From a virus: 64,000 nt of DNA. Below, in pieces: positions 943 through 3,232 of the stretch. The position numbers and the translations under genes were made by a program. The stretch is taken from positions 1-64,000 of IMG/VR virus record IMGVR_UViG_3300030098_003519. One strand, written 5' to 3'. The notes under the pieces are model-generated. The model worked only from the letters and a program-made list of their open reading frames with translations, searched no databases and had not been told where the DNA came from. Position 1 is the first letter of the stretch, and each line of letters starts with the position of its first letter.

Positions 943-1230
943 TTATTTGATTGCCACTCTCTCTGGTACTTTTACATCCAAGTTCTGTAGAAAGTTTACT
1001 ACAAATGCTTCGAGATAGATCAGAGGAAGTATAACAAAATCAATTCCATTTAACTGTTGTATTTTGTTAACAACTGTCTTAACTTTACTCTCTTGTTTAA
1101 TATCTTCAGTCACGATTGGCTTAGCAACTGGAGTATTTAGAGGTATAGATTTAGAAACAGTTGTTGATGTTTTACGAGTGCGTCTTTTGCGTGGAGTTGT
1201 TGATCTCTTTGCTGTAGATGCAGTTGGCAT
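943..1230 (-). CDS. Small protein with strongly basic N-terminus, unknown function
   Basis: 95 residues from the ATG at 1230; a longer reading would need a TTG at 1245. I do not recognise a family. The first ~25 residues are Ser/Thr/Lys/Arg-rich with a PRKRRTRK cluster (about residues 13-20). The middle is Pro/Val/Thr-rich. The last ~35 residues are hydrophobic and helical-looking (FVILPLIYLEAFVVNFL). The basic patch would suit nucleic-acid or membrane binding. The gene directly follows the putative structured RNA with no terminator between them, so one transcript could carry both, ending at 911-932. It could equally be an ordinary small late protein. No convincing Shine-Dalgarno sequence precedes the ATG. 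Confidence 0.6.
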   Translation of the reverse strand: MPTASTAKRSTTPRKRRTRKTSTTVSKSIPLNTPVAKPIVTEDIKQESKVKTVVNKIQQLNGIDFVILPLIYLEAFVVNFLQNLDVKVPERVAIK

Positions 1231-1249
1231 AGAATAATAATGCAATGGG

Positions 1250-1710
1250 AAACTATAGGGATGTTAGTTCTTTCTGTGGTGGCGACCCACGAGGCACATC
1301 CATCTCCTCGTAAATTAGTGTGTTGAGGACTTACAGGGCGTAATTTCTCAACTGAATTGAGACAACCATAGACCCTTGCCTAAATGATGTGGGACTTACA
1401 ACTTCAAAACTGTCTTTTCAGATGTCCTAAGACATCAGCAGTACAAGAGGTCTCCAAACATAAAGAGCAGTTTTCCACAGAATGAATCAAAGATCATCTG
1501 ATTGTTGCTCACCCCTGCCTTGCGTTTGCCCAAATAATGTGTGAGGGAGTGGGGCAATGATCTAGGTTTCACCCAGTTGCCCAAATTTACCTACTGGGAA
1601 TCGCTTACACCTGAACCCCCACCACTTTCAACTCTAAGGAGTTTCTACGATCCTAACATAAGTTAAGTCTGACGTAGGTTTGGGGCAGTAGAACCACATA
1701 TCCCTCAACA
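1250..1710 (-). ncRNA. Putative large structured RNA (about 460 nt), family unknown
   Basis: No ORF of useful length fits here on either strand, yet the minus-strand transcript is full of perfect inverted repeats. Pairings (plus coordinates): 1703-1710 with 1321-1328 (8 bp, ends brought together); 1681-1685 with 1617-1621, enclosing 1673-1677/1645-1649 and hairpin 1631-1634/1639-1642; 1593-1598/1572-1577; 1557-1562/1492-1497; 1468-1474/1406-1412, enclosing hairpin 1431-1436/1421-1426; 1357-1362/1346-1351; 1306-1311/1289-1294. The extreme ends also match (1258-1262 with 1700-1704). A late-promoter-like TATAAATG (1709-1716) lies at the 5' end. It lacks RNase P, tmRNA, group II domain V and obvious group I core signatures. 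Size and phage location recall the ROOL/GOLLD class, without proof. Exact ends are unknown; strand is inferred. Confidence 0.55.
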
Positions 1711-1716
1711 TTTATA
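1709..1716 (-). promoter_or_regulatory. Late-promoter-like TATAAATG
   Basis: TATAAATG on the minus strand matches 7 of 8 bases of the T4 late element TATAAATA. Transcription would start near 1703, at the 5' edge of the structured RNA. No good -35 element is present, as expected for a sigma-gp55 type promoter. Confidence 0.4.
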
Positions 1717-1725
1717 TAATAGCAT

Positions 1726-1750
1726 AAAAAAACCCCCTGTATAGGGGGCT
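1726..1750 (-). terminator. Terminator of the DUF262-HNH gene
   Basis: On the minus strand CCCCCT-ATAC-AGGGGG is followed by TTTTTTT, about 22 nt after the stop codon at 1772. It separates the nuclease-like gene from the structured RNA. Confidence 0.8.
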
Positions 1751-1771: not shown

Positions 1772-3232
1772 TTATGCTGCTACTGGAACTCTCTTGATTT
1801 GAACAGGTACAGTTGCACCTTTTCTCAAGTTAGCACTAGCATATACTAATGCAGCATTAGATCTGGTAGTAGATCCACCCTTACTCCAAGGATAATGATG
1901 GTCAACATGAATAATGCTACCATTTAATATATCCCTACAATTAATTTCCTTCTCAGTTTCAGGACACTTACCACCTTGTTCTCTCCACAAATCAAATAAG
2001 AAAGAAACATCCCTATTGAAATCTCTTTGAGGATCTCTGGAGATTATAAGACCATCTGAAAAATCAGATAATGATGCAATTAACTGATTCTCACGAATAG
2101 TTACAAAACTCTTCTGAGCAGATCTCTGAATACCAGCATATCCACGATCATCTGTTCCAGTTGGTTTTCCATAATTAGGAGAATTTTTATCCTTTTCAAT
2201 TTTTCTCCATAGAATAGTAGGATCTGCCAATCGTGCTGTTTGTGCATCACAATACTCCTCAAAGAATTTCTTCTTATCAGTATAAACAATATTATTATTG
2301 TTCATATAATTTAAGAGTAATGCAAGATCAACAATATTAGTATTTGTCCTTTTACTGCAATCAGCTACCTTGTCACCATCTTCTCTGAATTGAACTAAAT
2401 CAGCAATCTGTCTTATAATCTTATCTGCTCTACTGAATGATTGCACTTCAGGAGTACGATCACCATAAGCAGCATCCCTACTCTTTTCTCCAAATCCAAC
2501 AGTTCCTCTTGCACATAAAACAGCAACATCTACAACGAAGGCATCAATCATACGTCTATTGAATCCTTTCTCATTGTATATTGTTTCAAGTTTTTTCCTA
2601 TTCTTTTTAACACAATCTCTAACTAAACCTGAGAATACATACATCTTACAGTTACGCTTTTCTTGAGCGTTAAGAGTCATTCCCTTGTTGATAGATTCAA
2701 ATAAATCTGCTAGATCTTCTCTTGTTCCACTTTCAACTATTTTAACAGTAATGTCAGTATTTTCAATGTAAGTTCTAAATTGTGGATCAAGATCGTCAAA
2801 TAGTTTTGCACCATTAGTTGCTTCATATATTACAGGATTATTATCACTACCACCAACTTCATACTCACCTAAGAATAAAGGAAAGAGTCCTTTGAAAATT
2901 CCAAAGAAGAAATCAGTTATACATCTTGTCCTATTATTACCATCTATGGTAATATATCTGTAACCTTTATCTAAAAGTCCTTGATAAAATATATAATCGT
3001 CATGCTTTCTACCATATTTCTTTTCAACAGATCCTTGACATTTAGCTATGTCTGCAAGATATATTGAAGTTGGTGCTTTACCATTAAGTAAAGATCTCAT
3101 GTACTGTTGATTATTTTCAGTTACCCATCTATGGTAAGACTGAAACGAATCATCGAGATATATGCCGTTATCTCTCATAGTGGTGGCAAGATAATATGCC
3201 TTCCACCAATGGGCATCAATTCTAGTACGCAT
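1772..3232 (-). CDS. DUF262 (ParB-like) plus HNH endonuclease protein
   Basis: 486 residues. The N-terminal part looks like DUF262: DGNNR at residues 97-101 (DGQQR-like) and the FESINKGMTLNAQEKR motif at 178-193. The C-terminus carries an HNH module (about 420-475): a Cys pair around C...C before HVDHH (H442 onward), a PWSKGG turn and two Asn positions, SNAAL and ANLRKG. Family knowledge: DUF262-HNH architecture is typical of GmrSD-like modification-dependent restriction enzymes, but free-standing phage HNH proteins can also be homing nucleases. Here it has its own consensus-like sigma70 promoter (3318-3346) and terminator (1726-1750), and it lies directly upstream of a structured RNA. Possible roles (inference): attack on competing phage DNA, or selfish homing. 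Domain assignment is firm; function is not. Confidence 0.8.
   Translation of the reverse strand: MRTRIDAHWWKAYYLATTMRDNGIYLDDSFQSYHRWVTENNQQYMRSLLNGKAPTSIYLADIAKCQGSVEKKYGRKHDDYIFYQGLLDKGYRYITIDGNNRTRCITDFFFGIFKGLFPLFLGEYEVGGSDNNPVIYEATNGAKLFDDLDPQFRTYIENTDITVKIVESGTREDLADLFESINKGMTLNAQEKRNCKMYVFSGLVRDCVKKNRKKLETIYNEKGFNRRMIDAFVVDVAVLCARGTVGFGEKSRDAAYGDRTPEVQSFSRADKIIRQIADLVQFREDGDKVADCSKRTNTNIVDLALLLNYMNNNNIVYTDKKKFFEEYCDAQTARLADPTILWRKIEKDKNSPNYGKPTGTDDRGYAGIQRSAQKSFVTIRENQLIASLSDFSDGLIISRDPQRDFNRDVSFLFDLWREQGGKCPETEKEINCRDILNGSIIHVDHHYPWSKGGSTTRSNAALVYASANLRKGATVPVQIKRVPVAA

What the first reader, a model, noticed from the sequence alone, without database searches (positions are those of the whole stretch)
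1250..1710. A ~460-nt multi-helix RNA of unknown family between a DUF262-HNH gene and a small basic protein
The stretch has no usable ORF but at least ten perfect inverted repeats on the minus strand, including an 8-bp pairing that joins its 5' end (1703-1710) to 1321-1328 and a second end match (1258-1262 with 1700-1704). Several hairpins have 4-nt loops (1631-1642, 1421-1436). By eye it lacks the hallmarks of RNase P RNA, tmRNA, 6S RNA, group I core or group II domain V. Large ornate phage RNAs such as ROOL and GOLLD are the closest known idea, but this is shorter and I cannot show homology.
Basis: partly seen in the sequence, partly recalled or inferred. Interest (0 to 1): 0.85.

Follow-up and report, generated by a model that had tools for sequence, protein, structure and literature searches.

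The report
Mix-and-match structured mRNA leaders in cyanophages
The stretch is the start (5' leader) of a phage messenger RNA, built from interchangeable folded RNA blocks that marine cyanobacterial viruses shuffle in front of unrelated small genes, usually ending about 20-28 letters before the start codon; nothing like this combinatorial kit was found in RNA databases or in the papers searched.

Summary
The structured RNA is real, but it is not a free-standing ROOL/GOLLD-like RNA. It is the 5' leader (window 1231-1709, minus strand) of the small basic gene next to it, built as beads on a string: M1-Mc-M4-M5. Homologous modules lie in P-SSM2, P-SSM5, marine single-cell viral contigs and more than 100 IMG/VR contigs. 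No module matches Rfam.

Ten module types, which I defined, occur in 75 combinations among 244 complete leaders, upstream of at least 37 unrelated gene families. One gene family can have many different leaders. Every helix tested covaries, most strongly, with strand-specific G-U pairs, so these are RNAs. Leaders start about 8 nt after a -10-like box. The last module usually ends about 18-28 nt before an ATG that mostly lacks a Shine-Dalgarno motif.

M5, nearly always last, is followed by a 6-nt palindrome whose sequence varies (six types) while its symmetry does not, the signature recently used to support symmetric RNA-RNA contacts.

Best reading: a modular cis-acting leader that promotes or positions translation initiation, M5 also dimerising the mRNA. 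Anatomy is shown; mechanism is inferred. Closest known: manA/wcaG cyanophage 5'-UTR RNAs and the T4 gene 32 pseudoknot operator. It is a member of none of these.

The parts
1231..1709 (-). whole structured 5' leader, from the predicted transcript start to the base before the start codon
   Evidence: promoter-like box and start codon at the spacings seen in homologues; modules found by homology
1726..1749 (-). intrinsic terminator of the upstream DUF262-HNH gene (GCCCCCTATACAGGGGGTTTTTTT)
   Evidence: read directly; similar terminators precede several homologous leaders
1716..1721 (-). -10-like box TATTAT, ending 8 nt before M1
   Evidence: -10-like box at this offset in 20/46 M1-first leaders and at -8/-9 in 29/31 M6-first leaders
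1542..1707 (-). module M1: P1 1701-1707/1542-1548; P2 1687-1691/1591-1595; GAAA-loop hairpin
   Evidence: 90 distinct homologues, helices covary
1619..1682 (-). variable insert of M1 (commonest form elsewhere is 13 nt; in others it holds M4)
   Evidence: spacer comparison
1388..1532 (-). module Mc, including hairpin 1421-1436
   Evidence: 94% identical to the Mc consensus taken from other phages; in 18 leaders; few double changes, so its structure is less well tested
1327..1380 (-). module M4, a hairpin that also plugs into the M1 loop in other leaders
   Evidence: 60 distinct homologues, covariation
1259..1311 (-). module M5: GAGG/CCTC, covarying hairpin 1276-1290, and GGATGT (1296-1301)/ACATCC (1259-1264) forming a pseudoknot
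   Evidence: 40 distinct homologues; GAGG/CCTC and GGATGT/ACATCC are nearly invariant, so inferred from complementarity
1253..1258 (-). 6-nt palindrome CTATAG, proposed RNA homodimer contact
   Evidence: 114 of 116 perfect palindromes at this place in homologues, six sequences; position-specific, no intramolecular partner
1231..1252 (-). A/U-rich spacer before the start codon, no Shine-Dalgarno motif
943..1230 (-). gene served by the leader: 95-aa basic protein, start MPTASTAKR at 1230
   Evidence: homologous gene family carries many different leaders; no Pfam match above cut-off and no PHROG

Best explanation
SHOWN: the region is a 5' mRNA leader made of independently folding RNA modules that marine T4-like cyanophages recombine in front of unrelated, mostly small genes. 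The modules fill the 5' UTR from a promoter-like box to about 20-28 nt before the ATG. INFERRED: the leader works in cis on translation initiation. It keeps the 5' end structured and places a compact, often pseudoknotted domain (M5 or M7) at the 5' edge of the ribosome footprint, with an unstructured A/U-rich strand leading to a start codon without a Shine-Dalgarno sequence. In this way it recruits or positions the ribosome. INFERRED: where M5 is last, its palindrome pairs with the same palindrome of a second transcript and stacks on M5's pseudoknot helix, so such leaders dimerise, which could tune translation or stability.
For: Module homology and shuffling. 75 combinations in 244 complete leaders; M5 last in 98% of leaders that have it. 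Same gene family with many leaders; at least 37 gene families. Covariation far above shuffled and slid controls in M1, M4, M6, M7; G-U 105 against A-C 26, so RNA of this strand. -10-like box at a fixed offset. Last module to ATG: 87 of 101 M5-last leaders at 21-29 nt; medians of all 16 M5 gene families with an ATG within 45 nt are 21-27.5; Shine-Dalgarno-like motif in 9/163 leader genes against 41/167 P-SSM2 control genes. Palindrome in 114 of 116 cases, position-specific and without an intramolecular partner. The same argument was used for OLE and GOLLD contacts (PMC12286853).
Against: No expression, structure-probing or reporter data. M8-last (35-42 nt) and many M1-last leaders lie further from the ATG, partly because modules outside my set intervene. 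A fixed distance could reflect only that structure must stay off the ribosome site, although that would not set a maximum. Start codons were chosen by rule (first ATG of an ORF of at least 35 aa). Relatedness among contigs inflates counts. The GAGG/CCTC and GGATGT/ACATCC helices of M5 hardly vary and so are untested.
Confidence: 0.55

Rival explanations
1. The modules are mainly 5' stabilisers: structure from the first nucleotide hides the 5' end from 5'-end-dependent decay, and translation is not the target.
For: Modules begin at the predicted +1, with the M1 5' end in a helix. Many different modules appear interchangeable, as for a generic shield.
Against: Does not explain the narrow distance to the ATG over unrelated genes, the placement of M5 last, or the palindrome.
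Confidence: 0.18
2. They are translational operators: a phage RNA-binding protein (gp32- or RegA-like) nucleates on a pseudoknot module and spreads over the A/U-rich strand to block initiation, as in T4 gene 32.
For: Similar geometry to T4 gene 32: pseudoknot, then unstructured A+U-rich sequence over the initiation region (PMC3014915). P-SSM2 encodes gp32 and RegA.
Against: In T4 the pseudoknot is 67 nt upstream of one gene; here many modules serve many genes, and module combinations vary for the same gene. No site shared by all modules was seen.
Confidence: 0.15
3. Each module is a ligand-sensing aptamer (riboswitch) and combinations act as logic gates.
For: Invariant cores such as GGGTTCAGGTGTAAGCGATTCCC inside covarying helices; manA and wcaG were proposed to be regulatory (PMC2864571).
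Against: Downstream genes share no evident pathway; no mutually exclusive terminator or anti-RBS pairing was noticed by eye; modules are swapped freely among genes.
Confidence: 0.06
4. A free-standing ornate non-coding RNA of the ROOL/GOLLD kind.
For: Size about 460 nt, phage origin, multiple helices, palindrome consistent with oligomers.
Against: No Rfam match; modules occur alone or in many orders; consistent in-sense position just before an ATG; no terminator-like hairpin noticed before the gene.
Confidence: 0.03
5. The palindrome is a DNA-level recombination or endonuclease site that shuffles genes behind leaders.
For: It sits at the junction between leader and exchangeable gene.
Against: The sequence turns over among six palindromes while only symmetry is kept; only the left flank is conserved; within the MATRSRIG gene family four different palindromes occur.
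Confidence: 0.05

Closest known systems
manA RNA (RF01745)
   Same: Structured RNA in 5' UTRs of marine T4-like cyanophages, starting just after a -10 box; P-SSM2 has one at 142837-143034, 15 nt before purL.
   Different: One fixed architecture about 190 nt long, not a mosaic; annotated distance to the next gene varies from 15 to over 100 nt among phages; its model does not match any leader tested.
wcaG RNA (RF01761)
   Same: Cyanophage 5'-UTR RNA of unknown function (PMC2864571).
   Different: No Rfam match in the window or in the leader loci tested; gene context differs.
T4/T2/RB69 gene 32 pseudoknot operator
   Same: Pseudoknot followed by unstructured A+U-rich sequence leading to the start codon (PMC3014915).
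   Different: Single gene, single structure, 67 nt upstream, autogenous; here many modules, many genes, about 20-28 nt.
GOLLD / ROOL / OLE
   Same: Phage or bacterial large RNAs; OLE and GOLLD loops switch between palindromes, taken as support for symmetric intermolecular pairing (PMC12286853), as seen in M5.
   Different: Single large RNAs of fixed architecture; ours is a cis leader of shuffled small modules with no Rfam match.

Membership tests
manA RNA (RF01745) | match to the covariance model at the gathering score | tested here: not met
   no match in window or 13 loci at gathering, none at E<=0.5 in 7 loci or E<=10 in 900-1800; positive control: P-SSM2 manA found at E 5.6e-50
manA RNA (RF01745) | located in 5' UTR of cyanophage genes | tested here: met
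   leader directly upstream of an ATG
wcaG RNA (RF01761) | match to the covariance model | tested here: not met
   same scans
GOLLD / ROOL / OLE | match to the Rfam covariance model | tested here: not met
GOLLD / ROOL / OLE | free-standing RNA forming homo-oligomers | not testable with these tools
   oligomers need native gels or cryo-EM; palindrome covariation is suggestive only; position argues for a cis leader
T4 gene 32-type operator | pseudoknot 5' of an A+U-rich initiation region | tested here: met
   M7 pseudoknot: S1 covaries strongly, S2 weakly; M5 pseudoknot inferred; A+T 0.79 in last 15 nt
T4 gene 32-type operator | upstream of gene 32, with autogenous gp32 binding | tested here: not met
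   leaders serve many other genes; P-SSM2 modules are at PSSM2_070, 071 and purM, none found at gp32. Protein binding itself not testable here
group I / group II intron | match to intron models | tested here: not met
riboswitch | ligand-dependent switch between two structures | not testable with these tools
   no alternative terminator or anti-RBS pairing noticed; ligands unknown

The most novel reading that the evidence does not exclude
Marine cyanophages carry a construction kit of interchangeable RNA domains that build bacterial IRES-like leaders: they recruit ribosomes to start codons without a Shine-Dalgarno sequence in a host with streamlined regulation. A terminal module (M5) makes the mRNAs form symmetric dimers through evolving palindromes.
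Probability: 0.25. Interest if true: 0.93.

Novelty: new variant of a known kind. Interest (0 to 1): 0.82.

Why it matters
Structured 5'-UTR RNAs are known in cyanophages, but as single fixed motifs. A combinatorial set of RNA modules, shuffled like protein domains and tied to a near-fixed distance from the start codon, would be a new way for viruses to build gene-expression signals. It makes concrete, testable predictions about translation without Shine-Dalgarno sequences and about mRNA dimerisation in phages of marine cyanobacteria. The modules are small and strongly conserved, so they are good targets for structure determination and possible parts for synthetic biology.

Tried and rejected
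MFE folding of the whole stretch (z -0.78) was uninformative; of single modules M1 and M4 fold better than most shuffles but M5, M7 and Mc do not, so covariation carries the case. Rfam at permissive thresholds gave only chance matches. A circular permutation of one RNA was my first idea from P-SSM2 and L003, whose order is M4-M5-ORF-M1; rejected once the ORF between them proved to be a separate gene with its own leader and modules were found alone and in many orders. An intron with an internal ORF was rejected for the same reason and for lack of Rfam hits. A hidden conserved peptide was rejected because modules are shuffled and inserted in different contexts. Intramolecular pairing of the M5 palindrome was tested by swapping palindromes: no excess of partners (29 observed, 32 expected). 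manA shows no comparably tight ATG distance in the annotated genomes checked. Presence in cellular genomes: no exact M1 hit in the GTDB genome collection. Literature searches found no description of the modules. Laying out the whole own genome was not available; a pattern search of it found one M5 only.

Full report
Where it is. The window is 64 kb of an 89,493-base IMG/VR virus record with cyanomyovirus-like content. On the minus strand a DUF262/GmrSD-HNH gene (1772-3232) ends in a terminator (1726-1749). A -10-like TATTAT follows (1716-1721), then the finding's stretch, then a 95-aa basic gene starting at 1230. The stretch has no Rfam match, and its folding energy is not unusual (z -0.78).

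Homologues. A sensitive DNA search found relatives in Prochlorococcus phages P-SSM2 and P-SSM5 and in several marine single-cell viral contigs. The exact M1 motif is absent from 84,980 bacterial and archaeal genomes. No Rfam family matches 13 of these loci at gathering scores, nor 7 loci at E<=0.5.

Modules in different orders. The parts of the window RNA occur in other orders, alone, or one inside another. In one set of loci M4 (54 nt) sits inside the 13-nt loop of M1, splitting it 6+7. Using ten module consensus sequences taken from these loci, I found 244 distinct complete leaders in 75 combinations, 143 of them with at least two kinds of module; the module-covered part has a median of 141 nt. 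M5 is last in 98% of leaders that have it, and M6 is first in 81%. The window leader is M1-Mc-M4-M5. P-SSM2 holds two consecutive leaders: M6-M4-M5 before PSSM2_070 and M1-M8 before PSSM2_071. A diverged M7 ends 21 nt before purM.

They are RNAs. An unguided mutual-information ranking of 90 distinct M1 sequences puts paired helix columns at the top, e.g. C-G 44, A-T 32, T-A 13. For the helices tested, the share of pairs kept exceeds every shuffle and every slid register, and double changes exceed the shuffles; M1 P2 is 99.3% paired with 133 double-change cells, against at most 57 in shuffles. M4, M6 and M7 behave likewise. M7 is an H-type pseudoknot: its S1 stem covaries strongly, while its S2 stem is nearly invariant with a few double changes. 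Across helices there are 105 G-U against 26 A-C pairs, as expected for RNA of this strand rather than of the other strand. Mc and the GAGG/CCTC and GGATGT/ACATCC helices of M5 vary too little to be tested this way. These are counts on related sequences, not an R-scape test.

They are 5' leaders. A -10-like hexamer ends exactly 8 nt before the module in 20 of 46 M1-first leaders and 8-9 nt before in 29 of 31 M6-first leaders. For M5-last leaders, 87 of 101 have the next ATG 21-29 nt downstream. Of nine at shorter distance, seven belong to one gene family with its ATG at 7 nt, and two are ATGs inside a CCATGG palindrome; five are further away. Among leaders with an ATG within 45 nt, the family medians for 16 unrelated M5 families are 21 to 27.5; for M1 mostly 23-27, and for M7 mostly 18-24. 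The spacer is A/U-rich (0.79 against 0.68 in control genes). A Shine-Dalgarno-like motif occurs in 9 of 163 leader genes, against 41 of 167 P-SSM2 control genes. The same gene family carries different leaders: the family of the window gene has at least twelve combinations.

The palindrome. Right after M5's ACATCC comes a perfect 6-nt palindrome in 114 of 116 M5 copies (GCTAGC, CACGTG, CTATAG, CCTAGG, CCATGG or TCTAGA); the other two, CCTTAGG and CCATTGG, keep complementary arms around one base (a 117th pattern match there is not an M5). Among 105 distinct contexts with the palindrome there is no such excess at neighbouring offsets, apart from a two-base shift inherent in one of these sequences, and no excess of an intramolecular partner. 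Symmetry kept while sequence changes points to pairing with an identical copy. The same reasoning was used for OLE L9.3 and GOLLD L21a, where adjacent bases cannot pair within one chain (PMC12286853). The palindrome directly continues the strand of the proposed GGATGT/ACATCC helix, so a dimer could form one continuous stack. This is inference.

What is known nearby. manA and wcaG are 5'-UTR RNAs of unknown function found in marine T4-like cyanophages (PMC2864571). P-SSM2 has a manA RNA 15 nt before purL, with a comparable promoter-proximal start. Its model does not match our leaders, and its annotated distance to the next gene varies. A recent cyanophage study lists only abiF, wcaG, manA and glnA (PMC9964418). 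The nearest mechanistic analogue is the T4 gene 32 pseudoknot followed by an A+U-rich initiation region (PMC3014915).

Limits. Retrieval by exact motifs favours conserved copies; contigs are related, so counts are not independent; start codons were chosen by rule; the module list is incomplete, as some variable inserts remain unnamed; the control genes come from one phage; no expression data were available.

Verdict. A real, widespread and apparently undescribed family of modular structured mRNA leaders. Anatomy is well supported; mechanism (translation initiation, with M5-mediated dimerisation) is the best-supported inference but untested.

Noticed in passing
L217 42837-43034 (P-SSM2 142837-143034): manA RNA (E 5.6e-50) 15 nt before purL, whereas purM a little further on has a diverged M7 pseudoknot leader 21 nt before its ATG: two kinds of leader in one purine gene cluster.
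   Followed up: partly
L001 5140-5589 and homologues: The gene family most often behind these leaders (start M(A/G)TRSRIGLQL, YHHWDGYP; phrog_1987) has no known function and no Pfam match.
   Followed up: partly
L004, L013, L017, L066, L109 upstream of M1: A second class of M1 leaders lacks the TATAAT-N8 box and instead has a conserved GGGGG..TAAAGTGT..TATAGTG or CCTTAAGGTG sequence just upstream, possibly another promoter class.
   Followed up: no
window 1772-3232 (-): 486-aa GmrSD_N-HNH protein directly upstream of the leader; possible phage-borne restriction or homing-type nuclease.
   Followed up: partly
L216 18264-19221 (P-SSM2 68264-69221): A 958-bp gap in the P-SSM2 annotation that appears to hold several unannotated small ORFs with their own terminators and promoters.
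   Followed up: no
L132 3359 onward and homologues: A 397-aa protein (MAKNTHLEHLEDD..., KWDGAPA motif, possibly a nucleotidyltransferase/ligase) whose predicted ATG follows the M5 palindrome by one base, the one gene family that clearly breaks the 21-29 nt spacing.
   Followed up: no
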